Shown here: positions 544 to 17,651 of the stretch, piece by piece
How positions within the stretch are numbered: position 1 is the first letter of the stretch
Layout: every line of letters starts with the position of its first letter
Assembly: GCA_017612555.1 (NCBI GenBank)
Contig: JAGAFR010000033.1
Location: 1-47,189 of the forward strand
Length of the DNA stretch: 47,189 nucleotides
Origin: Lachnospiraceae bacterium
Lineage (GTDB): Bacteria; Bacillota; Clostridia; Lachnospirales; Lachnospiraceae
Direction of reading: 5' to 3'
Translations under genes and position numbers: made by a program
Notes under the pieces: generated by a model
Seen by the model: only the letters and a program-made list of their open reading frames with translations
What the model was told of the DNA's origin: nothing
Databases searched by the model: none

Positions 544-1458
544 ATGTCAGGATTTTGCAGATACTGTGGACAACCGAAAAGTGATAATACAAAATTCTGC
601 CGTTATTGCGGTATGAGTCTGGAGAAGGCCACGCAGTCCGTGCAGCCCGTACAGCCTGTGCAGGATATCCGGCAGGTTCAGCAAACTCAACAGGAACAGC
701 CAATGAAGCAGATCACCGGGTTCACCTCATTTGATATAGGTTTCTCTGATACTGCTCTTGACGGCGCAGCCGGCAGGGCAGGGGAGATCATGGCGCCTCT
801 TGCAGCGGTTACAAGTGTTTTCAAGCGCATCCCCAAAGGATTAAAGAATATCGGAAAAAAACCGGCATCGATCATAATCCCGATGATTTTCTCCGCATTA
901 TGGATAATTCTCTATAAACTGAGACAGGAGGGGCATGCGGATAATATGATCGCAGGGGTCCTGTCGTGGCTGAGCTTCGGACAGAACAGCGCTGAGAGAT
1001 CAGCGATCGGAGTGCTGGGAGACATTCTGGGAAAGGGTGTTGTGGTAACGGGTTTTACATCTCTTCTTACCGGAGGCACAGCTTTACTGAAGAAAGGCAT
1101 GTCCGGAATTCTAAACAGGGGGACTGCTGCACAGGGTTCAATGCTTAAGCAGAACCTCCCGTGGTTTCTTTGCGGCGTGGTAGGAGCATTGGCAGTCAGC
1201 AGATTTACAGCCGGGGCTCCGTCATTGTCACGCTCTATGGTTGTTATTGCATCAGCTGTGATGACCATTCAGGCTTTTGTAAATTCAAACAGTTGGTTAT
1301 ACGGTATTGCTGCCGCTGTTACGTCAAAGGTTGATAAAAACGGGAAAAGAACAGCTAACGTGGGAGCTATCCGCACTATAATGACGGGAATGACGGCGGG
1401 ATTTGCCCTGATGTTGTTGACAGATATAGTGCTGACTGTTGTAAACAGGTGGAGGTAA
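544..1458 (+). CDS. Zinc-ribbon multi-pass membrane protein
   Basis: This 304-residue protein is the first gene of the zinc-ribbon operon. Residues 5-22 form a four-cysteine zinc ribbon (C5xxC8...C19xxC22). A Gln/Val/Pro-rich linker (about 33-57) follows, then a region with four or five hydrophobic segments between about 108 and 300. The C-terminus is short and basic. AAGGAG at 531-536 fixes the start. From about residue 108 to the end it resembles the N-terminal 240 residues of the giant protein at 12439: both have a tryptophan-rich first segment, a WL(S/T)F motif, an ER(S) pair and LIGKGVV/ILGKGVV. It is therefore a stand-alone version of that module. Function is unknown. The cytoplasmic ribbon and membrane helices suggest an anchor or assembly partner. 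Confidence 0.85.
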   Translation: MSGFCRYCGQPKSDNTKFCRYCGMSLEKATQSVQPVQPVQDIRQVQQTQQEQPMKQITGFTSFDIGFSDTALDGAAGRAGEIMAPLAAVTSVFKRIPKGLKNIGKKPASIIIPMIFSALWIILYKLRQEGHADNMIAGVLSWLSFGQNSAERSAIGVLGDILGKGVVVTGFTSLLTGGTALLKKGMSGILNRGTAAQGSMLKQNLPWFLCGVVGALAVSRFTAGAPSLSRSMVVIASAVMTIQAFVNSNSWLYGIAAAVTSKVDKNGKRTANVGAIRTIMTGMTAGFALMLLTDIVLTVVNRWR

Positions 1459-1464
1459 CAAGCT

Positions 1465-3264
1465 ATGATGAAGACTAAAAACCGGACCAAATACATAGTA
1501 TTTCTCATTATGCTTGCCTTTGCAGTCATGATGATCACCGGGTGCGATAAGAAGGATAAGGATACCGAAAAGAAAACGGAAAACGAAAGCACAAAAGAAG
1601 AAAGTACAGGGACCGGCAGTGACAGCTATGATGGTAATTACGGTATGGGCAGCGGTCTTGCCGATCCTGACAAAATATATGATGCCGGATCGCTTATCCA
1701 GCTGGACGGATCGGAGATTTTTTATGTTTCGGTCGAAGACGGATATCCCTGGCTGGATTCAAAAACAGGCCTTTCGGATGGCGAAAAATACATCGCAGTT
1801 CCGGTGGGATACACGGATTACGGGAACAGCGGCAAGGAAGTCATTGCACCTGAGCATGTGTATCTGACTCAGGCAAAGGATGAAAACGGGAATGAGCTAA
1901 GCCTGGACGGAAAGTTAAAGCCTGTTACGGATATGCCGGAGTCGGAGATCAAGACCAATGCGGATTCATACTATAACAGCGCGCGGCCCTTTAAGACCGA
2001 TTCCGGTTATGAGATGGAACTTTGGGCGCTTTACAAGGTTCCGGAAGATACGAAGGAATGTGTTATTGAGTTTTTCCCGGATGATGATTTTTCCAAACCG
2101 CATGCCGGAGGTTTCAGGGTAAATATAAAGGAGAATACTACCTACGGAACAATGGAGGATAAAAGTGCCGTAGAGATCGCCAAGATGCTCGATACAGATG
2201 AAAGACCTTCACTGGAGGATTTTGCATGGTATACGGGCGCGATTAGAGCTGCCGAGGATTACTGTCATTTTAATAATCGGCATGCCGATTACACAGGCGA
2301 TAATTATATGGGTGGATGGAAAGCCTATCTTGTACGTGACCCGGATAATGAGGAAGGTCAGTTTGAGGCCCATCTTGCCAATATTTTCATTGAGAACTTC
2401 GAGGCGGAGGACGAATACAGGGAAGGCGGATGGTTTGATATCAATCTCAAATGGTACAGGGGGTTTGATGCAGACGGCAATGTGATCGATGAAAGCGGAA
2501 AAGACGACCTCGTGGAAAAACACGCCTATTTTACATATAACCGTATGAACAATGAGGAAGGTGACGGATATCCGGATGTCAGTTTCAGTATTGACCTTGG
2601 CGGGGATACGGCATATGGGGTAGGAAGTGTTGAACTCTCAAGAGAACTTAAGTACTGGCTTGTGGTCATACGACGTGACGGGAAAGTGTTAAATGAATAC
2701 GGAGCAGATACGGAGCATATGCCCGGGTCCAAGACCGTTAAGCTTCCGGCGAACATGACACCTTCATCCAAATCAGAGGGTGGTACACCCAAAGCGGATG
2801 AGGATATAGATGTCGGGAAAGACAAAGAAACACGCCGCGAAGAAAGCGATGACAGAAGTGACGATGGCAGCAGTGACGACGGCGAAGAACACTATGGTCC
2901 GGCTGCCGCCGCAAGGAAGAAAAAAGAGGAAGAAGAAAACACCGGATTGACACCGGGTAAATTGAAGAATGAGCGTAACGGCGCCAAGTCGTATGTTGTA
3001 TCCGGCTCCGATAAAGAGTATCTGGATAAAGAGAGTATTAAAAACATGGATGATAAGACTCTCCGCCTTGCGATAAATGAGATCTATGCCCGTCACGGGA
3101 GAAAGTTTAATGATAAAGAACTCCAGAGCTTCTTCGACGGGAAGGACTGGTATACACCAAAGTATTCGCCTGAAGAATTCGATAAGAAGCAGAACAGTAT
3201 CTTAAATGAGGTGGAAAAGAAGAATCTGCAGGTTCTTACGGAAGAAAGAAAAAGAAGGGAATAA
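1465..3264 (+). CDS. YARHG-domain lipoprotein
   Basis: This 599-residue protein begins with a lipoprotein signal peptide: basic n-region, hydrophobic stretch and lipobox ITGC with Cys27 as lipidation site, so it should sit on the outer face of the membrane. A Lys/Glu/Ser-rich linker follows. The centre (about 70-440) is an unrecognised acidic, Tyr-rich and probably beta-rich region, then a charged Asp/Ser/Arg linker (about 440-490). The C-terminal 65 residues contain INEIYARHGRKF and a downstream DW-Y pattern, which mark a YARHG domain; that domain is extracellular and of unknown function. The start is set by GGAGGT 8 nt upstream; a second ATG follows directly. It lies 6 bp after the first gene and 6 bp before the giant secreted protein. 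Confidence 0.85.
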   Translation: MMKTKNRTKYIVFLIMLAFAVMMITGCDKKDKDTEKKTENESTKEESTGTGSDSYDGNYGMGSGLADPDKIYDAGSLIQLDGSEIFYVSVEDGYPWLDSKTGLSDGEKYIAVPVGYTDYGNSGKEVIAPEHVYLTQAKDENGNELSLDGKLKPVTDMPESEIKTNADSYYNSARPFKTDSGYEMELWALYKVPEDTKECVIEFFPDDDFSKPHAGGFRVNIKENTTYGTMEDKSAVEIAKMLDTDERPSLEDFAWYTGAIRAAEDYCHFNNRHADYTGDNYMGGWKAYLVRDPDNEEGQFEAHLANIFIENFEAEDEYREGGWFDINLKWYRGFDADGNVIDESGKDDLVEKHAYFTYNRMNNEEGDGYPDVSFSIDLGGDTAYGVGSVELSRELKYWLVVIRRDGKVLNEYGADTEHMPGSKTVKLPANMTPSSKSEGGTPKADEDIDVGKDKETRREESDDRSDDGSSDDGEEHYGPAAAARKKKEEEENTGLTPGKLKNERNGAKSYVVSGSDKEYLDKESIKNMDDKTLRLAINEIYARHGRKFNDKELQSFFDGKDWYTPKYSPEEFDKKQNSILNEVEKKNLQVLTEERKRRE

Positions 3265-3270
3265 AAGCGT

Positions 3271-6200
3271 ATGCTGTTGAAAACTCTTAAGAATAGAATA
3301 CTCAGACGTTTTCTTGCAGGACTGGCTGTGGCGTTGATGCTTTACGGCGTTATGTCGCCTGTCTTTGTGTATGCAGCAGACCCGTTTCCATATGATAAAT
3401 TCGAATACTGGGGACTTGGATCCGGTGGCTCCAAGCCGGGAGTGACATGGTATTGGGACCTCACCGCCGGTGAATATTTCATAGATGCCGATGAATTATA
3501 TCCCGATGAAGATATGGATGGGTATTCAAAGATAAAAAAATATTACAGGGAAAACCATATCCTGATAAAAAGTAAGGGAGAATATAAGGGATTTCAGAGA
3601 ACACCTGATTACAGGGAGCTTTATCTTCAGTCTGTTTATTTTACAATAAAGGAACCGGAAGGATACCAGGATTATGATAAGTATGATGAATATAACGGTA
3701 AAAGGACAGAAATAGAAAAGGACGTAGTTGTATATTCGAACAAAGCAGAAAATGGTGCAAGCGGTAGTGTGTCTATATACAGTGATCCAAACGGGATATA
3801 TGGCGGTGGAGGTTTGGCCGCAACTGCCGCATGGTCATACGGCTGTGGTACGGATATCAGCATCAGCAACAAAGGTGAGGATGTTGACTACTGGATCAAC
3901 AATACCAGAAAAAAAATGGAATACTTTAAGAAGAATGAAAATGGTGTAGATGATCCATATATCGAAAAAGAGATCCCCGGGGGAATGCTTTTTATCGGAC
4001 ATAAAAAAGACATATTAAATAGTGCACATAAATTCAGTGAATACCATGAGTGGAAATATCATGCAGTATATAAACCCGAAGGGACTGAGCACATCATTGC
4101 GGATGTTGAATTTTCGGAACATTATAGTTTGGATGGGAATGGTGACGGAATTGAGAAATACATCAATAAATATTCCGGGTTTATAGATGAGTTACTGGGC
4201 AGAAATTACGGAATGCAGATAACGGATCCTGCTTCCCTTATCATTGAGTGGCAGGAGCCTGTGATCGATCCCATGTTCTATGAAGGGCAGGGATCTGCTG
4301 AAAAGGAAAAGAAAGAAGACGTAGTCGTGGAAAGCACTGCTTCAAAGGAAAGTGGTGAGCAGGACGGCGGTATTATCGACTCTGACATTGTAGAGGGTAA
4401 CAAAAAGGATCTTGCAGGCGTTGCAGGAGGAGTAGCGGCAGGTGTGGCTGCCGTTGCGGGACTTGTCTCCAATAATGAGAGCGCAGACGAGGATAAGAAG
4501 AAAAAATACCGCATGGTGATATATAAGGATTTCGGGGATATCATCAGACGGGGAGAGAAGAAAGCGGTATACGCCTGCATTATGGAGCAGGTCGGCACGC
4601 AGCCGGAAAGAGTGAATATACAGCTGACATCACAGATCAGTATCTTTTCAAAAGACGGCATTTTCTTTGTACAGGAGGCCGATGCATTATCCGGTGATTA
4701 CAAGGCTGCCTGGGCAAGCGTTTCAGAAGGTGCGGCGGATTCCGTGAGCGAAGGAGTTATCTGTTTCAGATTCGACGGAGCGGGCGGAAGCTACACCAAC
4801 GAGATGAAGTTTAACATAACTGAAGCAAAGATCATATTCCATCAGGAGAATATCGCTCTTGAAGCTCTGGACAGGGAGACTGTCTATATACCGTTTACCG
4901 TTCTGGGATTGGATCCGGATAAGATGGAAGTAGATGTGGATATGGAGGGAGAGTCCAGCTACAAGGCGGAAAAGACCAACAACCGGCAGGGAGTAAAGGG
5001 TACATACTTTGCTGCCCTTACCGATATCAATGAACTTGCCGGAGATGCCGGTACTTACACTACGGAGACTCTGACAGTAAGAGCGAAAGCAAGTAACAGT
5101 GAAGAAGTCATATCCGCACAGTTGCCGGTATACAGAGTTACTACGGGATTGAATATCGCAACGGACAGGCTTGATGTTTACAGGGTGGTTAAGAAGGAAT
5201 CACTGAACAAGGACGTTAAGGATCTTACCGAAGCTGATTTTGACTCTTCCGTAACAAAAGTAAATGTCATGGTGCTCAGGTACGATAAAGAGGAGCACCG
5301 CATGTGGCATGAGCCTGCGTTCCCTGAGCTCTCATTCTATCCCGAGGAATCCGACAGGGAAGATAACGTGATGCAGGAGCGACTTGATGCACTTCAGCTT
5401 ACCGCTACGCTCACCGGTGGTGATGAAGGCATGGCTGAGTATACATTTTACAGCAAGACCGGAGGGTATCTATCTGCGCCTCTTCGCCCGACCGTTATGA
5501 TGAAAGCGGTAGCAACGGTGGGAGAGGAAAGATACGAATGGGAAGACAGGATACTTCTGCAGAGCCAGCCTTTAAGAGACCGGCCGTCGATGACCAACCA
5601 GGATGTGGAGACACAGGAGATGATACTCGAACTCCAGTCAATGATCATGGACAACATGGATGATGTATTCCTGTATCAGGATGATGAACTTAACAGGGAA
5701 TATCAGCTTCTGGGTCTTATCTACAAGGGATATGAAGAGTATTACGGCTTTGATCTTGTACAGATCGAAGAGATAAAGTATAGGATATACAGCCGTATTG
5801 CCAGGATACACAGAGAATACCTTGACCGCCGTCAGGCAATGTATCTTACGGCACAGACTAACGCGTATGAAGATGCGGGATTCCTGTCAAATGTCGTAAA
5901 GTCGCTGGCAATGTCCGGGGAGGATGTTAATCAGTTCTTTGAAAGCAAACTGGGCAAGACCGGAGGCATGTGGGGACAGATCGCGGTCAGGGTCCTTGCG
6001 GGACTGGCTACCGGAGGCGGTTCGGAGATTCCGTATATGGCTGTTGATACGGCTGCATCATTAAACAGCTACCACGAGAGAGTTCCGTTTACCGAAAGGA
6101 CTACCGGCAAATGGATATGGGCGGGAGTTAAGCCCCTGGCCATGGCAAAGCTCGCGGAGCTTGGAGTCGGCACGCTGGCAAGCATCACTTCCGAGATAAC

Positions 6201-7689
6201 CCCGGAATTTATTAAGAGCGGAATTAAGGAATACGGGAAAAAGGCTGTAAGCGCCGGCTTAAAGAAGGTACCCGTAAATGTCATAAATGTCTCGACGAAG
6301 ATGTATAAGAGCGTGAAGCTCGGGGTTGATAAGATCAATTCCATACGCTTTGACCCGAAGAAACTGTGCTTTAAGTTCCAGGATGTGGCGGTAAAGGCTG
6401 AAACCGGTGCCGTTAATGCAGCAGGCAGGGAAGCACGGGAACTTCTTATGAAGGTGAACAAGGGAGCACGAACGGAGACCGGTAAGTTCATGTCCCTTGC
6501 CCAGGAAGTGGCCGAACTGGAAGCTACATTGGATATTAAAGAATTTGAGGCTGCATATAAAGCATTTAAGGCAGACCCGAACGGTACGACTATGAAAACG
6601 GTGCTTGATTCGGAAAAAAAGATCATGGGCAATGTAGTCACCTTGAATAAACTGAACCAGCTCGGAAGCAGTGAATTTGCCCTTATGGAGAATGTTAAGA
6701 ACATTAATCCCACCAGAAAGGCCTTCAATTCGATCAAGATGGAGATAGACGATGTGGCGGAAGGGATCATAAAAAAGAAAGCCGCGCTTCTTGAAGGCTG
6801 CAGCCCTGATGATATAAGCTTTATAAAAAAGACCGGAAACGCTATGGATGATATTGCAAAAGGCAGGGTGAGTCCGAGGGATACGGATATTTCCGTAGTG
6901 ATGAAAACGAAAAACGGAAACATGCGCTACATCAGTGAAGCAAATGCGAATGAGGCTGTCTATACCGGATACTGCGATACACTGAATATAAAGTATTCAA
7001 GTGTTGAAGAGGCAAGGATTGCTGCGGAAAAGGGACTTAACATCAACTCCGTTGCACAGGGCAGCGGAGAATACATACACGGTTACAAAAACCTCGGCAC
7101 AAGGGGCGGTTTTACCAAAGAGGCCATTGAACTTAACAGGAAGACCTATGCCCACAAGTTTGTGAATAAATATAAAACTTCAAAGGCAACGATCGATAAG
7201 ATAGTGGAATCGGATATCAAGAAAACAGTAGAGGCGGAGCTGGAAGCGTATAAAGAAGCACTGCACACGGGAAAGAAGGTAACATTAAGTTCAGAAGCCA
7301 GGGAGTCGGTTGAAGCCATCAAGGGTATACAGGATTCCATGAACCAGGTCGAAAAGACAGCGGGACATTATAAACTTCAGGATATCCAGGCACAGGCCAA
7401 CGGCTTTGACAGGGCATATACCGCAAATGATGACCTTTTTGTCGAAGCTACAAGGATGACAAAGTACGAGGGTATACAGTTTGCGGATTCCGGACAGTTC
7501 CACGATATGATGGCCTTAAAGGGAAAAGATTATCTTTCAATGGCAGATGAGTTTATCGATAACACAGCAAAGACTGCCGAGAACGCCATAGGTATCAATC
7601 CGGACAGTTACGATAAACTGACCGGAACAGTTAAGGAAATATTCACCGGATCGATTTCCAACAGGTTGACTATGGAAGCACCGGAATAA
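3271..7689 (+). CDS. Giant secreted or membrane-anchored multidomain protein
   Basis: The protein has 1472 residues. Residues 1-35 are a signal peptide (basic start, long hydrophobic core, cleavage likely after VYA35). An unrecognised Tyr/Asp-rich domain spans about 36-350. A Gly/Ala-rich hydrophobic segment at about 381-400 could span the membrane, followed by a Lys-rich turn and the motif YKDFGD near 415. Beta-rich Ig-like or receptor-like stretches (about 420-780) lead to an alpha-helical C-terminal half with a Gly-rich hydrophobic patch near 900-935 and an acidic motif (D1204, D1206). From about 405 to the end it is paralogous to residues about 590-1598 of the protein at 12439. The layout (export signal, long shaft, variable helical tail) recalls polymorphic toxins and contact-dependent effectors, but I recognise no toxin domain and no immunity gene. 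Confidence 0.85.
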   Translation: MLLKTLKNRILRRFLAGLAVALMLYGVMSPVFVYAADPFPYDKFEYWGLGSGGSKPGVTWYWDLTAGEYFIDADELYPDEDMDGYSKIKKYYRENHILIKSKGEYKGFQRTPDYRELYLQSVYFTIKEPEGYQDYDKYDEYNGKRTEIEKDVVVYSNKAENGASGSVSIYSDPNGIYGGGGLAATAAWSYGCGTDISISNKGEDVDYWINNTRKKMEYFKKNENGVDDPYIEKEIPGGMLFIGHKKDILNSAHKFSEYHEWKYHAVYKPEGTEHIIADVEFSEHYSLDGNGDGIEKYINKYSGFIDELLGRNYGMQITDPASLIIEWQEPVIDPMFYEGQGSAEKEKKEDVVVESTASKESGEQDGGIIDSDIVEGNKKDLAGVAGGVAAGVAAVAGLVSNNESADEDKKKKYRMVIYKDFGDIIRRGEKKAVYACIMEQVGTQPERVNIQLTSQISIFSKDGIFFVQEADALSGDYKAAWASVSEGAADSVSEGVICFRFDGAGGSYTNEMKFNITEAKIIFHQENIALEALDRETVYIPFTVLGLDPDKMEVDVDMEGESSYKAEKTNNRQGVKGTYFAALTDINELAGDAGTYTTETLTVRAKASNSEEVISAQLPVYRVTTGLNIATDRLDVYRVVKKESLNKDVKDLTEADFDSSVTKVNVMVLRYDKEEHRMWHEPAFPELSFYPEESDREDNVMQERLDALQLTATLTGGDEGMAEYTFYSKTGGYLSAPLRPTVMMKAVATVGEERYEWEDRILLQSQPLRDRPSMTNQDVETQEMILELQSMIMDNMDDVFLYQDDELNREYQLLGLIYKGYEEYYGFDLVQIEEIKYRIYSRIARIHREYLDRRQAMYLTAQTNAYEDAGFLSNVVKSLAMSGEDVNQFFESKLGKTGGMWGQIAVRVLAGLATGGGSEIPYMAVDTAASLNSYHERVPFTERTTGKWIWAGVKPLAMAKLAELGVGTLASITSEITPEFIKSGIKEYGKKAVSAGLKKVPVNVINVSTKMYKSVKLGVDKINSIRFDPKKLCFKFQDVAVKAETGAVNAAGREARELLMKVNKGARTETGKFMSLAQEVAELEATLDIKEFEAAYKAFKADPNGTTMKTVLDSEKKIMGNVVTLNKLNQLGSSEFALMENVKNINPTRKAFNSIKMEIDDVAEGIIKKKAALLEGCSPDDISFIKKTGNAMDDIAKGRVSPRDTDISVVMKTKNGNMRYISEANANEAVYTGYCDTLNIKYSSVEEARIAAEKGLNINSVAQGSGEYIHGYKNLGTRGGFTKEAIELNRKTYAHKFVNKYKTSKATIDKIVESDIKKTVEAELEAYKEALHTGKKVTLSSEARESVEAIKGIQDSMNQVEKTAGHYKLQDIQAQANGFDRAYTANDDLFVEATRMTKYEGIQFADSGQFHDMMALKGKDYLSMADEFIDNTAKTAENAIGINPDSYDKLTGTVKEIFTGSISNRLTMEAPE

Positions 7690-7700
7690 AGGAGGACGAT

Positions 7701-8897
7701 ATGTTTTGTGAACAATGTGGTTCTAAAGTGGAAGATGGAATGAAGTTCTGTCCGGACTGCGGAGCATCGGTCGATTATGACAGCGAGCCGGTAAATCAGA
7801 TACAGCAGCAGGCATCTGCACCGCCACCGCCTATGCCGTCTGCGCCGCCACCGCCGCCACCGCCGATGAACTCCGTGCAGCCACAACCGATGAATCCCGT
7901 GCAGCAGAATATACAGGAGCTGCAGCAGGAGAGTCAGCCTAAAAAGAAATTCCCGGTTGCTCTTATAATAATTCTCATGGTGCTGCTGGCAATTGTGGGA
8001 GGAATAGTATATGCGATCAAGGTGGTAAAGGAAAAGGTTGCAGAAGCGATATCTGAGGTTGCTGTCGAAAGCGTGGTTGGTGATCTTGAAGAAGCTGTAG
8101 ACGATCATTCCGAGGCAGATGAGGCGAAGACAAGCGAACCGGAAAGCAATGATGCGGTTACTGATGCAAATAAGACAGACGGACCTGACGAGGAAAAACC
8201 TTACGAAAACAGTGAAGACGTAAGGGGTGGTGATGAGGACAATAAAAAGGACAGTGAAAAAGACAGCAGTGGCCCTGCCGGCAACGGTTTTGATGATGAG
8301 ACCGACAAACCTGAAATTTCAGATGACGGAAACGATAATGGAAATGACAATGCAGGTTCTGCCGGTATAAAAAGCGTGGATACAAAAGATCCGTCAAAAA
8401 CCGCGATCTCCGGCGGAAAATGGGATATCATGGAGTCGGGAGAATTCCAGTATCTGAAGAACGGAAAAGCTGTCACGGATACATGGGCAGAGGATGAAGG
8501 CGAATACTATTATGTCGGACCTGACGGCTGTATGGTACGAAACAATTATGCGCCTGACGGATACTGGGCCGATGATAACGGATGCTGGGATAAGTCTGTG
8601 CAAAGACAGGAATTACAGTTTGAGCCATACAATAATGATTATGTCGGAAATCTCTGGACATTTGAGATAACGATGGATGACGCATACAAGGGAACAGGAA
8701 AGGTTTACTATTCACAATACTTCGGAAAAGGGGAGCCGCCTAAGACCGATCTCCGTATAGAAAGACTCGGGATCAGCTCATATGCGGCATATTCCGAAAA
8801 GAACGAGAATGAGATATACCTGCTTACTGTTACGGATGATGGCTGGGGACTCATTGTTTCAAGTGACGGACAGACTGAGAAGTGTTCGGTTGAGTAA
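7701..8897 (+). CDS. Zinc-ribbon membrane protein with cell-wall-binding-like repeats
   Basis: This 398-residue protein has an N-terminal zinc ribbon (C3xxC6...C17xxC20), a Pro/Gln-rich linker with runs of prolines (about 34-75), one transmembrane helix (about 84-110), and a strongly acidic Asp/Glu/Asn/Ser linker (about 130-235). An exported repeat region (about 235-305) has Trp-Gly-Tyr periodicity such as EYYYVGPDGCM and DGYWADDNGCW, typical of choline- or glucan-binding cell-wall repeats (CW_binding/Choline_bind type). The C-terminal 90 residues are beta-rich and unrecognised. Topology would put the ribbon in the cytoplasm and the repeats in the wall, so it may tie the complex to peptidoglycan-attached polymers. 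GGAGG sits right before the start, 11 bp after the giant gene. Confidence 0.82.
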   Translation: MFCEQCGSKVEDGMKFCPDCGASVDYDSEPVNQIQQQASAPPPPMPSAPPPPPPPMNSVQPQPMNPVQQNIQELQQESQPKKKFPVALIIILMVLLAIVGGIVYAIKVVKEKVAEAISEVAVESVVGDLEEAVDDHSEADEAKTSEPESNDAVTDANKTDGPDEEKPYENSEDVRGGDEDNKKDSEKDSSGPAGNGFDDETDKPEISDDGNDNGNDNAGSAGIKSVDTKDPSKTAISGGKWDIMESGEFQYLKNGKAVTDTWAEDEGEYYYVGPDGCMVRNNYAPDGYWADDNGCWDKSVQRQELQFEPYNNDYVGNLWTFEITMDDAYKGTGKVYYSQYFGKGEPPKTDLRIERLGISSYAAYSEKNENEIYLLTVTDDGWGLIVSSDGQTEKCSVE

Positions 8898-8908
8898 GGA
8901 GGAATAGT

Positions 8909-10240: not shown

Positions 10241-10263
10241 CAGAACCCAAGGAGGTAAAATTA

Positions 10264-12426
10264 ATGTTTTGTGAAAACTGCGGAAAACCATTGTTGGATG
10301 GTGCCACATTCTGTACCGAATGCGGATGTAAGGTGGGTGATAACACCGGTGGCGACAGCGGTAAGGTCAGTGTCCCCGTGCCCAATATACCGCAACCCGG
10401 TATACCGGCTCCACAGGCGGCTGCGCCACAGACAGCTACTCCACAGACAGTTGCGCCCAAGGCGACTGCATCTCAGGCACAGGCCGGGAAACAACCTGTG
10501 CAGAAGGCACCTGCGCCTAAAAAGAAAGGGTTGCATCCCGTAGTAATAGTCCTTCTTGCTATTGTAGGAACCATAGTGTTGGGATTCATCGGGCTTGTCA
10601 TTATAGGATTGAGCGTTTCCGATAGCGAAGGATCGTCGGATACGGATGCTGAAAGATCGGTTACGGAAGGATCTGAAGAAGCAGGATCCAAAGAAAACAA
10701 TCCCGAAGCGATCGACCAACTGCTGGCTATACTTGATGAAATGGAAGCAGCAACCGAATCCCTGGGAAGCGGTATGGATGATGCCACAGACATAAAGGCC
10801 ATTATCGATGTGGGAAATAAATGGTACGAACAGATCGAGGACCAGTATAAGAGATCGCAGGAGATCGAGGGATTGCCGGCCAACATAAAGAAGGCCGCTG
10901 CGGATGATTATGAAATGTATCTGTCGGCTATTGAATCCTTTAACAAGGATATGGTTTTTGCTAAGGACATCCAGGAACTTGCCGAGACTATCGATGAGAA
11001 CGATCTTGCAAAAACATATAATGATTTTGAGGAAAAGCATTCGAGCACCCAGTGCCCTGACAACATGGCTGACTCCTGGGCTGCTATAGGCAGATCGCTT
11101 GATTTTCTTGCAGAATCGTACAATCGAAGCGTTCAAGGCCAGGAGCTGGATGACAGCCTTAGGATCTTTTCATCCAATAATCATCTGATCAGGTTCAGTT
11201 CGGTGTTCGGAAATGAAACGAGCAGGATCGTTGAAGTAAACTCTGCGGAGCAGGAGTTCATGCTCGAGCAGATAAACAAAGTGGGTGAGATAGACAGTGA
11301 GATAAGAGAAGCAGTAGCGCTTGCTCCCGAAGAAATGGAAAAGTATGAATTCAAATATGATGTCGACGGTGTAGTTGTTGATCCGACATATTCACATGTG
11401 GAGAATATCTATCCGTCTCTTTACAATACATATGACAGTTTCGTGACTGTTAACATTGGATGTCTTCACGGTGAAAAAGATATCATTGTGGAGTGCGAGA
11501 TCCCCGGACTGTCGCAGAGTATGTCACAGAGTTACCACATCGGGTCGGCAATGACCGCACTTAGCATTAAGCCTCCGGCGGCAAGTGATAAGCCTGATCT
11601 TAATACTGCCAAGGATTCGCAGATAAAGCTTACGATCAAGGACAAGAAAGATCAGAGCATAATCGATACCCAGTCGTTCCCGGTGCATATATACAGCAGG
11701 AATGATTTTGTATGGTATTCGGATGAATTCGGAACGGTAACAAGGGATAACATTCTGTGCTTCCTTGCTCCCGATGCGGATGCGATCACGGAACTTAAGA
11801 GAAATGCGATCGATGTACTCGAAGAAATGTCGGGTGGAGAGATGAATGCTCTGGTAGGATACCAGGGACCGTATTTTGCTGAATACGATGACGACGGCAA
11901 CGTTACAAATCTTGGAACGGCTCAGTACATTACAACTTTCCTTCAGGCCGCGGCTATCATGAGAGCTATGTCGGATATGGGAGTAAGGTACACGAATGAT
12001 GCTTTCTCGATCAACAACGCAGATCAGCATATCCTGTTCCCTGATCAGGTCATTGATAAGAAAACAGGCCTTTGTATTGAGACTTCGCTTGTTGTGGCAT
12101 CTGCCCTTCAGAGTATGGGTATGCATACTTACATTATCTTTCCTCCGGGACACGCTCAGGTAGCAGTTGAGACATGGGAAGGTTCGGGAAGATATTTCCT
12201 TATCGAGACAACTGTACTTCCTAATACCAACAGCATGTTTGTCGATGATGCCAATGCCATTTTAAGCGGCTGGACTTCGGAATATGACGATCAGCCTATT
12301 GCCAGTCTTATGCCGGAACAGTGGGCACAAATGCTTCTCCAGGATCCGGACGATGACAGTGACGACTGTTATGTCCTTGACTGCAGTGACGGAGCGTTTC
12401 TCGGAATGACACCGTTTGCGAATTAG
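10264..12426 (+). CDS. Zinc-ribbon anchored transglutaminase-like protein
   Basis: This 720-residue protein has an N-terminal zinc ribbon (C3xxC6...C17xxC20), an Ala/Pro/Gln/Thr linker (about 38-88) and one membrane helix (about 90-115). A long extracytoplasmic part is helical and Glu/Asp-rich to about 290 and beta-rich to about 500. The last 200 residues match the transglutaminase/papain-like core: the nucleophile region TGLCIETSLVVASALQSMG (Cys604), a histidine in PPGHAQV (His630), and a third position in FLIETTVLP occupied by Glu648 where Asp is usual. Such domains act as proteases, amidases or protein cross-linkers; activity here is inferred. In context it could cross-link or cleave the secreted giant proteins on either side. 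The start follows AAGGAGGT. Confidence 0.83.
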   Translation: MFCENCGKPLLDGATFCTECGCKVGDNTGGDSGKVSVPVPNIPQPGIPAPQAAAPQTATPQTVAPKATASQAQAGKQPVQKAPAPKKKGLHPVVIVLLAIVGTIVLGFIGLVIIGLSVSDSEGSSDTDAERSVTEGSEEAGSKENNPEAIDQLLAILDEMEAATESLGSGMDDATDIKAIIDVGNKWYEQIEDQYKRSQEIEGLPANIKKAAADDYEMYLSAIESFNKDMVFAKDIQELAETIDENDLAKTYNDFEEKHSSTQCPDNMADSWAAIGRSLDFLAESYNRSVQGQELDDSLRIFSSNNHLIRFSSVFGNETSRIVEVNSAEQEFMLEQINKVGEIDSEIREAVALAPEEMEKYEFKYDVDGVVVDPTYSHVENIYPSLYNTYDSFVTVNIGCLHGEKDIIVECEIPGLSQSMSQSYHIGSAMTALSIKPPAASDKPDLNTAKDSQIKLTIKDKKDQSIIDTQSFPVHIYSRNDFVWYSDEFGTVTRDNILCFLAPDADAITELKRNAIDVLEEMSGGEMNALVGYQGPYFAEYDDDGNVTNLGTAQYITTFLQAAAIMRAMSDMGVRYTNDAFSINNADQHILFPDQVIDKKTGLCIETSLVVASALQSMGMHTYIIFPPGHAQVAVETWEGSGRYFLIETTVLPNTNSMFVDDANAILSGWTSEYDDQPIASLMPEQWAQMLLQDPDDDSDDCYVLDCSDGAFLGMTPFAN

Positions 12427-12438
12427 ACGGGAGGTAAA

Positions 12439-15400
12439 ATGGTGAAATACTGTCCTAAATGCGGAAACCCGATGAACGACACTGCAAAGTTCTGCAGACA
12501 TTGCGGGATGGTAAAGATGCCGTCAGCAGACACGGATATATTTGCTGCGCCCGGAGAATTTGATCTTGGAGCGTTCGGCAATATCGAAAATGTCACCAAG
12601 GCCGTAAGAGATGTAAAGGATGCAGGCAAACGATTTCGAACGATGCCGGCGATCTTGTCGGCCATCGGGCTTTCTATCCTGTGGATAGTACAGCTTGTAT
12701 GGATCAAAAATGATGTGAGTAACCCACTCGCCGTATTCTCCGAGTGGCTGACATTTGCGCGTGGAGGGATAGAACGATCCTTTTTCGGGGGGATCGGAGG
12801 TCTCATCGGAAAGGGTGTGGTTGCTTCCGCCCTCGCGGGAATAGTCGGAGGCGGCATGGGTTCTGTAGTTGCCGGTGTAAAGCAGTCTTTTAACGGAACA
12901 TACTTTAAGAAAAATACGGGTGGATTTGCCGTGACCGGTATCGGGATCAGCTTTGTCCTGTATCAGATCTTTACAGGGAACGGATCCTTTGCGGGGGCTA
13001 TGGCTGCTGTGGCGTCTATGCTTGTCGCGGCAAGAGCATCGGTTGGCAAAGCCGGAATACTGTATGGATTTGCAAGAAAGGTTACATCAAAAAAGCAGGG
13101 TAAGGAAAAGATCATCATAAACGAAGCCGTTATGTCGATGCTGGGCGGTATCACAATGGGCTTTGCTTTTTGTGTTCCCATAGCGATCTTCCCATGGGAG
13201 ACCATGCATGTTTTCCTGGGTATCATACTGATCGTGATCGGTCTTATTATGACATTGGCGAGCAAAAGCAGCAGCAAAACTGCGGGAATGATCATATTGT
13301 TCGTATCAGGTTTTCTTTCATTTTCTGCGCATAACGTGTCTGCAGAAGAGGTTTCACGTATACAAATGAAAATGGTGACTCCGAGCCTTGGTATGGAAGT
13401 CACCACATACGAAGGAAAGGAAACGATCTATGAGCCGCCGTATAACTGTACATTTGTACTCTACTCCGACGGAACTGCTGACATTGAGTTTGAGGGAATA
13501 GATGAAGAATTTGACTATACTCATAAACATCTCCGGATAGGAGAAGACCAGAGATTCGGCCCGGCACAGGGCCATTTTTCGAAGCATATTTCGGGATTTT
13601 CCTTTAAAAAAGTGCCGTGGAAAAATCTTAACGACGGTGAGCATTACGGATACGGATGGGATGAGGAATCTGATTCATTTGTATGGAGTTTTGACGGGGA
13701 TACATTTGATGTTTATTCCTTAAGATGGTCTATATATAATCTTGGATCCCATAATCTCCTGACCATAGGTTTATACGGAGATCCAAACGGCGCTACCGCA
13801 TATGGAAATGCAGCGGTTTTCCATGACGTGCCTGATGCTGATCGTACTTTCATAAATATCTGTTTTTCGGATGACGGTTTGTGTACGCTTGCGGATATTA
13901 CGGCCGATCAGGCGGAAGAACCCAAAGAGGAACAAAAGCCGGAGGAGCCGGAAAAAAAGAAGAATGTTGAGATCGTTACCGAGGCTAAGGAAACCGAGGG
14001 TGAAGATGAAGTTGAGATAGATAAGGAGATCATCGAAGGCAGGGAAAAAGAGGAGAAGAAGGGACCGATCGGAGCAGGGACCGTTGCCGTAGTCGGTGCA
14101 GGCGGTATCATTGCGGGAGCAGCGGGCGCTGCTGCTGCCGGTGCGGCTGCAAAAGGTGATAAAGGAAGTCAAAAAGGAAACGAAGAACCCACTGGGGAAC
14201 AGAAAAAGAAGTATAAGATGAAAGTCTATAAAGACTTTGGAAATATGATCAGCAAAGGGCAGCAGAAGTATGTTTATGCGAGGATAGTGGAGGTTGATGT
14301 CAAGACCGGTATGGAAACGGACAGGCCGGATCTTACGATGAACATCAGCATATACTGTGATGACGGTTCGTTTGATGTCGGTCTTCAGGAAGAACTTGCC
14401 GGAAAACATAAGGGTGCGCAGGTATCCGTAGCGGATGATCATAAAGGAAATGAAGGATATATTTCATTCAAATACAGCGGTGTGGGCGGAACATTTACGA
14501 ACAGGATGCGCTTTAATGTTACTACCGCTGAGATCGTATTTGATCAGCCCAATATCTCTATACCCCATGACTATGATAAACCGCTCAAGCCATATTTTAT
14601 TGCACTTGGCTTCGGAGAGGGACTAAAGGTCACGGCATCCATTCTTCCTGATAATGTATATAACGTAAATGTGACCGAGGGAGAAAGTACGGGACTTGAT
14701 TTTGCAAAGTTATTCTATGCAAACCTTATCCCGCTAAGCGGAGTTCCTTCGATGGATGACAGGGAGCCCGGTGCTTCAGAGATGTATTCGCTTCATATCG
14801 AAGCTGTAGATTCGTCGGGTACGTGGGCAGAAGCCAACCTTCCGATAGCACGGATACGGACCGGTCTTATACTGACTGCAAAATATATCAACTGTTTCTT
14901 TAACAAGGATGTTACGAGTGCGGTTGCCGCAGCCGGAGATGTCAGGAGACATCACGTCAGATATACTTCACTTGCCGAGACCAAAGCAGAACTTAAGCTG
15001 GTGGTATGGGATGATTCTTCTGAAGAACACAGGGTGAAGATCCTTGCACCTCTTCCGAAATCGATCAGATTTAAGACAGAAGATCCCGAAGAGCAGACGA
15101 TGATAGATAAGATGGCGATACAGATGGATCCGGGGGATGATCCTGCCTTTGGTGAAGACGGAGGGCTGCAGGTTGCACTCAGGGTCACAAAGGCATGGCT
15201 TGACGCACCGCGCAGGATAAAGGCAAAGGTTACGGTTGAAGCAGTTGCTGATAATAAGACATATTCTGCCGAGCAGGATATACTACTGGTCAGCCAGCCG
15301 AACAGGAACGAACTCGATATGGAGCAGATGCAAGCGGCGATTAAGGAAGATAAGAGGATAGAAGAGCAGCTCGAGCATTTGAAACAGGTGATCCATAATA

Positions 15401-17235
15401 CATGCTATCAGAATCTGTTCCCTGTTCACAAGATCATTGATGAGATGCTTTTGTCATATGATCCCGAATACGGATATGACGAGGAGAATGTCGCAACCGT
15501 TATCAATACTTATAATTCGTTCTGCCGTGGTGAGATGCTTGGAGCAAACGCCAAGCCTGCGGAAGGAGAATCAGTCATTGACTGGATGCTCTGGGCGATA
15601 GATGCCATGGGTGATGCGGCAGATAGACTCGAGGAGAAGGCCGGATTCTGGACAAGGCTTGCCATAGGTGTGGCTACAGCCGGGCTTTCCGAAGTTGCAT
15701 TTACGACTATGGATATCATCCGTGTTCCTTATCGTATGAAGCAGGCTATAGAAAAGGGTGAGGACTCGGTGCTCGGCGTTATGTGGGCGGGCGCAAAGGA
15801 CATAGTGCTCGGCGAGATACAGGGAAGAGGCATGGAATGGCTCCAGGGCGGTGCCTGGACAATGGCCAAGGGCTTTGCGGCAGAAGCAAACAGTACGGTC
15901 GGAAAGAAACTGTTCAATATCATGACCAAATCAGAGACTGCTATCGCCAATTATTCCAACAAAGTTCAGTCGATTAACGCCAAGACAACGATCAATAAAG
16001 AGATGTTCAGTAATGTGTTCAAGCCTGATGTTAATGTTCAGGCAGCAAAACAAAGGGCACAGGAGGCTAAGCTCTCTCAGAAGCAGGCTGATCTTGAGGC
16101 AGACAGGATCATAAAGGAACAACGTATGAAAGATGCAGGGACGGAGCTTGGCGAAGTAAAGGGAGCAACGGAGCACGGCGTTATCGTGGAAACGCTTCCT
16201 GACGGATCGCAGAAGGTGGTGGGCAGAGATCTGTCCGATCCCTGGACAAAGAAGAGCTTTGAAGGCTATGAAAAAGTGGTCGAGCTTCATCGCGCGACCG
16301 AGAACCTGCGCAATTCTCCGACACCCGAGGCGCAATTGCGCTATGATAAAGCCGCCGCTGAAGTAAGGTCTGATTTTGTTGCGGGAGATCATCTGAAACA
16401 TTATACAAACGTATATGCCAAGGAGGTTCAATACAAATACAATCAGCATTGGGAAGGTATCGATGCAAGAGCTGATAAGATCGCCGGAGATAATCTGTAT
16501 AGCCGCCTGAAGTCGGAAAATCCCGGACTGAAGAGAGAAGATATATACACAAGAAGTGTAACAACGAGTAAAAAGGATCCGTACAAGACCAGCATAGATC
16601 ATGATATGACGGATATGATGAAGAAAGGTCCGGGCAAGGCGGATGTTGAGATCAATGATCGCATCCAGTATGAAGAAAATGCCAAGGCGGCTTACGAGGC
16701 TGTGACGGGAAAGAAGCCGACGAGTCTGGAGGAAGCGATCCGTGTCGCGGAGAAGTATCAGTATACTACAGTCGCCGGCGAGGGCACATATGCCAAGGAA
16801 AAGTTCGCGGATGTAAAGGAAATGCTCGATCCCGGTCATGCGGGAAACAAGCTCAAGAATGCGCTTAAGGATGCTGAGGTTATGGAGTTTAAGACAAAGG
16901 AATTTGTCGACAGGGCACATGCCGGCTCCGATGCTGTTGAAAGTGCGATGAACCTGTTTGAAGCAGGAAGGACTACGCATAAGGATATGGCAAGATCCAT
17001 CATCTCACGTAATGAGGCACTGATGATGAAAGGATATCCGAACGCACTTACAAAAGAAGACCAGATCCTCTGCGTCCTTCTTGACAGAACATTTGGAAAG
17101 GGTGCAAGAGGCGGTCATCTTTCCATGGACTGTTCAGATTTCTACAGATCGATGAAAGCGGTAGGGATCGAAAATGGTACACAGCTTGCCGCGAAGATGA
17201 AAGAATTAACTCTGCGAGTTTCCGGTGGGGATTGA
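12439..17235 (+). CDS. Giant fusion protein: zinc-ribbon membrane module plus exported multidomain module
   Basis: The protein has 1598 residues. Residues 5-22 are a zinc ribbon with the same cysteine spacing as the gene at 544. About 70-290 are several membrane segments paralogous to that gene. Near 280-300 a hydrophobic stretch ending NVSA/EE looks like an embedded signal peptide. An unrecognised beta-rich domain with an acidic linker (about 300-540) follows, then a Gly/Ala-rich segment (about 545-572), and the motif YKDFGN near 598. From there to the end it parallels the protein at 3271, including a Gly-rich hydrophobic patch (about 1071-1100) and an acidic DxD (D1387, D1389). The simplest reading is a fusion of operon genes 1 and 3 after duplication. 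The helical C-terminal tail diverges most. Function unknown; GGGAGGT precedes the ATG. Confidence 0.85.
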   Translation: MVKYCPKCGNPMNDTAKFCRHCGMVKMPSADTDIFAAPGEFDLGAFGNIENVTKAVRDVKDAGKRFRTMPAILSAIGLSILWIVQLVWIKNDVSNPLAVFSEWLTFARGGIERSFFGGIGGLIGKGVVASALAGIVGGGMGSVVAGVKQSFNGTYFKKNTGGFAVTGIGISFVLYQIFTGNGSFAGAMAAVASMLVAARASVGKAGILYGFARKVTSKKQGKEKIIINEAVMSMLGGITMGFAFCVPIAIFPWETMHVFLGIILIVIGLIMTLASKSSSKTAGMIILFVSGFLSFSAHNVSAEEVSRIQMKMVTPSLGMEVTTYEGKETIYEPPYNCTFVLYSDGTADIEFEGIDEEFDYTHKHLRIGEDQRFGPAQGHFSKHISGFSFKKVPWKNLNDGEHYGYGWDEESDSFVWSFDGDTFDVYSLRWSIYNLGSHNLLTIGLYGDPNGATAYGNAAVFHDVPDADRTFINICFSDDGLCTLADITADQAEEPKEEQKPEEPEKKKNVEIVTEAKETEGEDEVEIDKEIIEGREKEEKKGPIGAGTVAVVGAGGIIAGAAGAAAAGAAAKGDKGSQKGNEEPTGEQKKKYKMKVYKDFGNMISKGQQKYVYARIVEVDVKTGMETDRPDLTMNISIYCDDGSFDVGLQEELAGKHKGAQVSVADDHKGNEGYISFKYSGVGGTFTNRMRFNVTTAEIVFDQPNISIPHDYDKPLKPYFIALGFGEGLKVTASILPDNVYNVNVTEGESTGLDFAKLFYANLIPLSGVPSMDDREPGASEMYSLHIEAVDSSGTWAEANLPIARIRTGLILTAKYINCFFNKDVTSAVAAAGDVRRHHVRYTSLAETKAELKLVVWDDSSEEHRVKILAPLPKSIRFKTEDPEEQTMIDKMAIQMDPGDDPAFGEDGGLQVALRVTKAWLDAPRRIKAKVTVEAVADNKTYSAEQDILLVSQPNRNELDMEQMQAAIKEDKRIEEQLEHLKQVIHNTCYQNLFPVHKIIDEMLLSYDPEYGYDEENVATVINTYNSFCRGEMLGANAKPAEGESVIDWMLWAIDAMGDAADRLEEKAGFWTRLAIGVATAGLSEVAFTTMDIIRVPYRMKQAIEKGEDSVLGVMWAGAKDIVLGEIQGRGMEWLQGGAWTMAKGFAAEANSTVGKKLFNIMTKSETAIANYSNKVQSINAKTTINKEMFSNVFKPDVNVQAAKQRAQEAKLSQKQADLEADRIIKEQRMKDAGTELGEVKGATEHGVIVETLPDGSQKVVGRDLSDPWTKKSFEGYEKVVELHRATENLRNSPTPEAQLRYDKAAAEVRSDFVAGDHLKHYTNVYAKEVQYKYNQHWEGIDARADKIAGDNLYSRLKSENPGLKREDIYTRSVTTSKKDPYKTSIDHDMTDMMKKGPGKADVEINDRIQYEENAKAAYEAVTGKKPTSLEEAIRVAEKYQYTTVAGEGTYAKEKFADVKEMLDPGHAGNKLKNALKDAEVMEFKTKEFVDRAHAGSDAVESAMNLFEAGRTTHKDMARSIISRNEALMMKGYPNALTKEDQILCVLLDRTFGKGARGGHLSMDCSDFYRSMKAVGIENGTQLAAKMKELTLRVSGGD

Positions 17236-17276
17236 TATCTATAACGGTGTGGTTTTCAAATGAAGGAGGTATAACT

Positions 17277-17651
17277 ATGATCATAGTAGGATTTGTGATT
17301 GTATGTTTAGGTATATTTTTCATGATCTACTACAAGGTTCACAAAAAACAGAACAATCGACGCACCGCCAGAGTGCAGGGAACCTGTGTCAACATTACCG
17401 TTAATACGAGTGAGGACTCCGGCGACACGACACACTATGATTTTTCCTACGATGTGGGAGGAAATCAGTATATGCTAAAAAATCTCATCGTCCCGGGCTC
17501 TCCCGCAATAGGAGATCAGGTGACCATTCGCTATAATCCCGATAATCCGAAAGATGCCGGGTATGATTTTGCCAGTGACGGCAAAGAGCAATATATTCTG
17601 TATCTCGGGATCGGTATTACGGTAGTCGGGATCATCTTGATGATATTATAG
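17277..17651 (+). CDS. DUF3592-type membrane protein
   Basis: This 124-residue protein starts with a membrane helix, has a soluble beta-rich loop (about 22-100) and ends with a second helix. The loop contains the GD-V-I-YNP-NP signature (GDQVTIRYNPDNPKDAGY) of DUF3592, a small two-helix membrane family of unknown role. I start it at 17277 because GAAGGAGGT lies at 17262-17270; a TTG at 17232 in frame would add 15 residues but overlaps the previous stop and lacks a site. It is the last gene of the zinc-ribbon operon. I see no intrinsic terminator between it and valS. Confidence 0.75.
   Translation: MIIVGFVIVCLGIFFMIYYKVHKKQNNRRTARVQGTCVNITVNTSEDSGDTTHYDFSYDVGGNQYMLKNLIVPGSPAIGDQVTIRYNPDNPKDAGYDFASDGKEQYILYLGIGITVVGIILMIL

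What the first reader, a model, noticed from the sequence alone, without database searches (positions are those of the whole stretch)
544..17651. Eight-gene zinc-ribbon / giant surface protein operon, candidate undescribed envelope system
Seen: eight tightly spaced genes with strong ribosome binding sites; five begin with the same CxxCG...FCxxCG ribbon. Several then have a Pro/Gln-rich linker, a membrane helix and an exported domain (wall-binding-like repeat, transglutaminase-like core, giant beta/alpha modules). A YARHG lipoprotein and a DUF3592 protein complete it. Known: the single domains occur widely in Lachnospiraceae. Inference: the ribbons may mark the products for a shared cytoplasmic hub, while the exported parts assemble or process a surface structure. 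I know of no named system with this set.
Basis: partly seen in the sequence, partly recalled or inferred. Interest (0 to 1): 0.75.

Follow-up and report, generated by a model that had tools for sequence, protein, structure and literature searches.

The report
Undescribed two-part clostridial membrane module
The eight-gene cluster is real but looks particular to this gut bacterium; inside it a pair of linked membrane proteins occurs twice, recurs across several families of Clostridia, matches no catalogued protein family, and may help the cell sense or organise its own surface.

Summary
Observation confirmed: eight co-directional genes, gaps 6-41 bp; 5 of the genome's 11 zinc-ribbon matches lie here. 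The eight-gene set is not a conserved system: a same-genus genome lacks it, with shared DNA starting exactly at valS; g6 is in 2 of 25 genomes; g5-like proteins are scattered.

The conserved core is smaller. g7 is a fused form of what g1 and g3 encode separately. Module A (g1; start of g7) is a polytopic membrane protein, often ribbon-tagged. Module B (g3; rest of g7) has a signal-like start, an outside domain, a membrane-like segment and a giant C-terminal part. A is fused to or near B in 22 of 24 B loci with full context; fusion status changed at least four times on the B tree. A occurs in 7 family codes of the class. Beyond the ribbon, library searches gave only marginal hits.

Best reading: a membrane-spanning envelope-sensing or scaffolding pair whose ribbons dock partners in the cytosol, laid out somewhat like PspA-YdjGHI. 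The giant part is more likely cytosolic than exported (moderate evidence).

The parts
544..1458 (+). g1, module A encoded on its own (304 aa): ribbon, Pro/Gln linker, membrane helices. It seems to stop after helix 5, one short of the other A modules.
   Evidence: matches g7; alignment of A
553..621 (+). Zinc ribbon of g1
   Evidence: Zn_Ribbon_1 25.7 bits in the DNA search
1465..3264 (+). g2, lipoprotein-like protein (599 aa) with YARHG domain
   Evidence: YARHG 67.3 bits; lipobox read by eye
2185..2757 (+). W domain of g2 (about residues 241-431), shared with ribbon proteins beside A-B in L030 and L046
   Evidence: Leave-out profile E 0.0012; blastp 2.9e-4 with L030
2989..3237 (+). YARHG domain of g2 (residues 509-591)
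3271..7689 (+). g3, module B encoded on its own (1472 aa), signal-like start
4411..4467 (+). Gly/Ala-rich membrane-like segment of g3 (residues 381-399)
4495..5247 (+). Conserved B core of g3
   Evidence: Alignments A3, A6
5587..6201 (+). Helical region of g3
   Evidence: Alignment A5
6784..7158 (+). C-terminal domain of g3 with the invariant DxD
   Evidence: Alignment A4
7701..8897 (+). g4 (398 aa): ribbon, Pro/Gln linker, one helix, wall-binding-like repeat
8472..8588 (+). Choline-binding-like repeat of g4 (residues 258-296)
   Evidence: 29.6 bits, cut-off 27
8909..10240 (+). g5 (443 aa): several ribbons and a C-terminal membrane region; scattered family, YdjG-like in layout
   Evidence: likeness to YdjG not tested directly
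10264..12426 (+). g6 (720 aa): ribbon, linker, one helix, exported transglutaminase-like domain
11599..12171 (+). Transglutaminase-like part of g6 (residues 446-636); Cys and His of the active site present by eye, Glu where Asp is usual
   Evidence: NF058533 part match 1.7e-18; sequence
12439..17235 (+). g7 (1598 aa): fused A-B
12571..13281 (+). Module A of g7 (residues 45-281)
14083..14139 (+). Gly/Ala-rich membrane-like segment of g7 (residues 549-567)
14200..14973 (+). Conserved B core of g7
15316..15867 (+). Helical region of g7
16513..16893 (+). C-terminal domain of g7 with the invariant DxD
17277..17651 (+). g8, DUF3592 protein (start corrected from 17232)
   Evidence: 35 bits; start

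Best explanation
The heart of the locus is a two-part membrane module, A and B, present twice: once split (g1+g3) and once fused (g7). SHOWN by genome comparison: A and B are linked, fused or close together in nearly all loci with full context, with repeated fusion or fission. SHOWN by sequence statistics: A is a polytopic protein whose loop charges place its N-terminus, and in the six-helix forms also its C-terminus, in the cytosol; B begins with a signal-like segment and has a second membrane-like segment before its conserved core. INFERRED: (1) A and B form one complex. (2) In fused forms the seventh helix serves as B's signal sequence, and its end, which looks like a signal-peptidase site, may be cut. 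(3) B's first domain faces the wall while its giant core and C-terminal domain face the cytosol. (4) Ribbons on A and on g4, g5 and g6 are cytosolic docking tags that gather wall-facing helpers (wall-binding repeat, transglutaminase-like domain; the YARHG lipoprotein has no ribbon and would join from outside) around A-B. (5) The complex senses or organises the cell envelope, in layout somewhat like the PspA-YdjGHI network. The non-A-B genes are this lineage's accessory set. Step odds: A-B partnership 0.9; B's first domain outside 0.9; giant part cytosolic 0.6; ribbon docking 0.45; envelope role 0.4.
For: A fused to or near B on the same strand in 22 of 24 B loci with full context. Fusion status needs at least 4 changes, all forced by starred branches. 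Outside the family 11 of 12 further genomes with A have a B-like exported protein beside or fused to it; 'B-like' is by layout in most, since the B-core profile hits only those of G477 and G513 and one piece in G526. Loop charges of 26 A modules; G-[K/R] of helix 2 in 25 of 26. Signal-like starts in 23 of 23 split B examined; six of six fused forms end the extra helix in [A/V]-x-A by eye. Net charge higher after the membrane-like segment in 21 of 25 B. Extra ribbon proteins denser near A-B. Soluble C-terminal-ribbon protein paired with a related giant in two families. Wall-related domains in g2 and g4. Membrane recruitment by YdjG and YdjH and its link to wall synthesis: PMC8581546, passages.
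Against: L031 and L047 have B without A nearby, G458 has A without B. g1 seems to lack helix 6, which would leave its C-terminus outside. 9 of 26 A modules have no ribbon of their own. Charge is lower after the segment in 4 of 25; of nine further B-like proteins it is higher in 6, equal in 2, lower in 1. The segment is Gly/Ala-rich and only moderately hydrophobic in many B. Cysteine content does not tell the sides apart. No function was measured, and the eight-gene set is not conserved.
Confidence: 0.42

Rival explanations
1. Surface-structure system, close to the first reader: B's giant part lies outside, A anchors or exports it, and the wall-binding and transglutaminase-like proteins fix or crosslink it.
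For: Signal-like starts of B; exported wall-related domains in g2, g4 and g6; acidic linkers before the segment; L140-L142 and some others do not follow the positive-inside pattern.
Against: Membrane-like segment in front of the core, with more positive charge behind it in 21 of 25; soluble, signal-less ribbon partners beside related giants; no sortase-type or other surface anchor was noticed, though none was searched for.
Confidence: 0.25
2. Conflict module: B is a toxin-like protein with exchangeable C-terminal parts and A is its membrane partner.
For: C-terminal parts differ between subfamilies: DxD domain, a HELCH metallopeptidase-like motif in L094 (by eye), another type in L034 and L093.
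Against: The DxD part is conserved, not swapped, in the long B of the g3/g7 type. No match in plasmids (g3), phages (g7) or viral contigs (A3). No PADLOC match to g1, g3, g6 or g7. No immunity-like gene was noticed, but none was searched for.
Confidence: 0.12
3. Neighbours by accident: A-B is a real pair, but g2, g4, g5, g6 and g8 are unrelated envelope genes gathered in one accessory operon, and the ribbons mean nothing in common.
For: Operon absent from the sister genome; g5-like genes occur with and without A-B; ribbon-containing matches are common in the family (346 of 397 genomes match profile A1, mostly at its ribbon end).
Against: Five of 11 ribbons in one operon; ribbon density raised near A-B elsewhere; the W domain recurs beside A-B in two other genomes.
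Confidence: 0.2

Closest known systems
Bacillus subtilis pspA-ydjGHI envelope-stress network (PMC8581546, PMC11237479, PMC9239133; passages read)
   Same: Ribbon-bearing membrane protein (YdjG) and a soluble SPFH protein with a C-terminal zinc finger (YdjI) act together at the membrane; g5 has several ribbons and a membrane end as YdjG does, and a g5-like gene lies beside a Band_7 protein with a weak C-terminal ribbon in L118.
   Different: No PspA, YdjH or SPFH gene in this operon; A and B have no counterpart there; g5 was not compared with YdjG itself.
Ribbon-TM-YARHG proteins (PMC3355149, passages read)
   Same: Ribbon inside, one helix, wall-facing domain; YARHG proposed to bind peptidoglycan.
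   Different: Here YARHG is on a ribbon-less lipoprotein, and the ribbon proteins carry other outside parts.
NCBIfam NF058533, anti-phage protein ProA
   Same: g6 residues 446-636 match a stretch near its N-terminus at 1.7e-18; the G073 homologue at 4.6e-24.
   Different: Covers about a tenth of the 1903-position model, 65.5 bits against a cut-off of 1500. g6 is a ribbon-tagged exported protein.
TcaA-type ribbon-TM proteins (layout recalled from general knowledge)
   Same: Ribbon, helix, outside part; g4 has a marginal match to NF053815 (E 0.025).
   Different: 13.4 bits against a cut-off of 550; outside domains not shown to be related.

Membership tests
PspA-YdjGHI network | pspA, ydjH or SPFH gene in the operon | tested here: not met
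   No such Pfam match among the eight genes; downstream ORFs are housekeeping by eye
PspA-YdjGHI network | YdjG homologue | tested here: inconclusive
   g5 has ribbons, a weak Zn_Ribbon_TF match (3e-4, under cut-off) and a membrane end; a g5-like gene beside a Band_7 protein in L118; no direct comparison with YdjG
YARHG proteins | YARHG domain over the Pfam cut-off | tested here: met
   g2, 67.3 bits, cut-off 27
Anti-phage ProA (NF058533) | Score over the curated cut-off along the full model | tested here: not met
   65.5 bits against 1500; model positions 72-236 of 1903
Transglutaminase-like superfamily | Pfam cut-off | tested here: not met
   Transglut_core2 17.2 bits, cut-off 23.5; Cys and His present by eye
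A-B module (defined here) | A and B fused or adjacent | tested here: met
   g7 fused; g1 and g3 with g2 between; 22 of 24 B loci overall
A-B module (defined here) | Giant part on the cytosolic side | tested here: inconclusive
   21 of 25 by charge, counter-cases, cysteine test uninformative
A-B module (defined here) | A and B bind each other | not testable with these tools
   Structure prediction switched off

The most novel reading that the evidence does not exclude
A-B is an undescribed transmembrane receptor-effector system of Clostridia: a ribbon-tagged polytopic subunit with a conserved basic residue in helix 2, paired with a giant protein that has a wall-facing sensor and a cytosolic effector of unknown fold (the DxD domain in the long forms). 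Some lineages encode the pair as one chain that signal peptidase may cut into its two subunits, and ribbons recruit interchangeable wall-facing and soluble partners to it.
Probability: 0.3. Interest if true: 0.8.

Novelty: new variant of a known kind. Interest (0 to 1): 0.55.

Why it matters
Zinc-ribbon membrane proteins are common in gut Clostridia: 346 of 397 genomes sampled from the family match a ribbon-containing profile, mostly at its ribbon end. Apart from the Psp-linked case and the YARHG proposal, my paper searches turned up no shared role for them. A conserved pair with repeated gene fusion gives a concrete complex on which to ask what the ribbons dock to, and points to two protein families without a curated name in the clostridial envelope. 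Fused forms with a signal-like junction would also be a case of a membrane protein possibly matured by cutting into two subunits.

Tried and rejected
Eight-gene system: rejected as a conserved unit.

Recent duplication of g7 into g1+g3: rejected. On the B-core tree g3 groups with L046 and L048, and g7 with L039 and L041-L043, each on a starred branch.

DxD domain as a nucleotidyltransferase: considered by eye, not supported. PDB sequence search gave only E 0.75 or worse; no genome but the window's own among 348 of the phylum matched it.

Further library searches for A and for B's core and helical region: only ribbon or marginal hits.

Cysteine content as a test of side: uninformative; exported controls had 11.1 per 1000, cytosolic 15.7, B outside domains 9.0, B giant parts 10.0.

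Mobile element: g3 found nothing in plasmids, g7 nothing in phages, A3 nothing confirmed in viral contigs.

Papers: the ProA searches found nothing relevant. Searches for ribbon-TM systems showed no description of A-B in the listed titles and abstracts. That it is not in print rests on those and only.

Singleton phmmer with parts of g2, g4, g6 and g8 found no relatives in the neighbourhoods; the g2 W domain showed by blastp (2.9e-4) and by a two-sequence profile (0.0012), which is modest.

I also added that g1 seems to lack helix 6 and that g3's ribosome site is weaker.
Full report
WHAT IS THERE. The window is a whole 47,189-base contig of a 2.51 Mb, 94-contig assembly, 89.7% complete. Genes g1-g8 run on the + strand from 544 to 17651, followed by valS at 17720. 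Gaps are 6-41 bp; ribosome sites are strong except g3's; g8 starts at 17277. The ribbon clustering is not chance: 11 Zn_Ribbon_1 matches in the assembly, 5 of them here (simulation with an assumed 2300 genes).

A SPLIT AND A FUSED COPY OF ONE THING. g7 residues 52-246 match g1 and residues 524-1177 match g3 (E 3.5e-13 and 2.8e-40; repeated). The outside domains in between show no clear match (best 43 residues, E 0.062). g1+g3 and g7 are two copies of a module with parts A and B, and not a recent duplication: on the B-core tree g3 joins L046 and L048, g7 joins L039 and L041-L043, both on starred branches.

DISTRIBUTION. With g7 as query 15 of 299 family genomes matched, own included, several by the ribbon only. 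With the ribbon-containing A profile 346 of 397 match, mostly at the ribbon; strong matches over the membrane part (E <= 4e-22) are in 10 genomes, own included, and one weaker one in G247 (3.9e-11). The named-genome scan gave 17 loci, labelled Lachnospiraceae (8), Oscillospiraceae, Ruminococcaceae, Ruminococcus, or unplaced Clostridia and Clostridiales; 7 titles name a ruminant gut source. The B profile hits 5 of 391 class genomes, own included, one of them (G576) weakly. The membrane-only A profile hits 13 of 391, own included, in seven family codes. The DxD domain matches only the window's own genome among 348 of the phylum.

A AND B BELONG TOGETHER. The B-core profile hit 30 proteins in the fetched loci. 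I set aside 4 repeats of the same contig (L040, L049, L050, L098) and 4 cut by a contig end on A's side (L027, L051, L095, L097), leaving 22, plus g3 and g7: 24. Of these, 22 have A fused (4) or on the same strand nearby (18), two of the latter with one gene between (g2 in the window, the first B in L046). L031 and L047 have none, also in six frames. In L044 B precedes A, while its sister L029 is fused. Fusion status needs four changes, gains or losses, all forced by starred branches (model LG+G4; L032 is a long branch). Outside the family, 11 of the 12 further genomes with A have a B-like exported protein beside or fused to it, judged by layout in most; the exception is G458.

LAYOUT. I read six hydrophobic helices in the profile of 26 A modules, with positive loops on one side, so both ends lie in the cytosol; helix 2 holds G-[K/R] in 25 of 26. 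g1 seems to stop after helix 5, an exception I cannot explain. Ribbons precede 17 of the 26; L028, L039, L041-L043, L030, L034, L099 and L100 have none. All 23 split B examined begin with a signal-like segment. In six of six fused proteins the helix after A ends in [A/V]-x-A by eye, so a cut into A and B is plausible but unproven. B then has an outside domain, in most an acidic linker, and a Gly/Ala-rich segment. Net charge is higher after that segment than before in 21 of 25 (Wilcoxon P 1.2e-4; the rows are related), which by the positive-inside rule puts the giant part inside. Against this: 4 of 25, and among nine more B-like proteins 6 higher, 2 equal, 1 lower, with L140-L142 level or lower although their segment is a convincing helix. 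Cysteine content did not help.

COMPANIONS. g2's middle domain is shared with ribbon proteins beside A-B in L030 and L046. Apart from A and B, ribbon proteins are denser within 3 kb of A-B loci (9 in 141 kb, in 8 of 27 loci) than further out (3 in 197 kb), P 4e-4 (a pattern search, which missed at least the L034 partner because it overlaps the core). Giants L034 and L093, from two families, share 39% over 557 aa; each is followed by a soluble protein with a C-terminal ribbon, and these two are related (E 1e-6 mostly over the ribbon, 9.5e-6 over a stretch without it). g5 belongs to a scattered family (18 of 25 genomes), one member of which lies next to a Band_7 protein with a weak C-terminal ribbon (L118). 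This recalls pspA-ydjGHI, in which YdjG and YdjH are needed to bring YdjI and PspA to the membrane and their loss disturbs wall synthesis under stress (PMC8581546, passages; domains in PMC11237479 and PMC9239133, passages). g6 is rare (2 of 25); its transglutaminase-like part resembles a stretch of the model named anti-phage ProA, on which I found no paper.

ACCESSORY STATUS. In the same-genus genome G193 the DNA match begins exactly at valS (window 17720) and runs to 23268, then 23583-24677; upstream stand other genes. G193 has no g7 match, no g6 match, and only weak matches to the ribbon-containing A profile (best 1.8e-7).

MECHANISM. I commit to a membrane-spanning complex of A and B that senses or organises the envelope, with ribbons as cytosolic docking tags. 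The linkage of A and B is shown by genome comparison. The side of the giant part rests on moderate evidence. Docking and envelope role are inference from neighbours and from the Psp analogy. Rivals are an outside surface structure, a conflict module, or a chance gathering of envelope genes around A-B.

NOVELTY. Apart from the ribbon, A and B gave only marginal hits in Pfam, NCBIfam, PADLOC, PHROGs and PDB sequences. The ribbon-TM-outside layout is in print (PMC3355149, passages). My paper searches did not surface the A-B pair; only listings and four papers' passages were seen. I rate it a new variant of a known kind, because the layout recalls known ribbon-anchored membrane networks while both core families are unnamed.

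Noticed in passing
L094:7216-10107: A B protein of another family whose C-terminal part holds HELCH, the pattern of zinc metallopeptidases; no Pfam match.
   Followed up: partly
L093:5881-12636 and L034:4719-10791: Two giants with related C-terminal parts in different families, each followed by a related soluble protein with a C-terminal ribbon; the L093 giant also has a long GYDKEGYDAE-type repeat.
   Followed up: partly
L118:7702-10534: A g5-like gene beside a Band_7/SPFH protein with a weak C-terminal double ribbon, recalling YdjG-YdjI.
   Followed up: partly
L097:2120-6019: A 1299-aa ribbon-TM protein with a PGAP1/lipase-like domain downstream of a B gene.
   Followed up: no
L140:5280-6689 and L142:2914-4326: A multi-helix protein with a C-terminal part that looks by eye like a LuxR DNA-binding domain stands upstream of A-B in two families.
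   Followed up: no
L046:9023-17325: Two B genes in tandem (1382 and 1367 aa) behind one A.
   Followed up: no
L039:4931-6562: A lipoprotein-like protein with a glucuronyl-esterase-type domain (PF22244) upstream of A-B.
   Followed up: no
L121:6120-8691 (G000 contig C30): The window's own genome has a second pair: a ribbon-TM protein (483 aa) followed by a g5-like protein (368 aa), with no A or B noticed beside it.
   Followed up: no
window 1459-1554: The A profile match of g1 runs on through g1's stop into the first codons of g2, which are in the same frame; g2's signal-like helix may simply resemble the missing helix 6.
   Followed up: no
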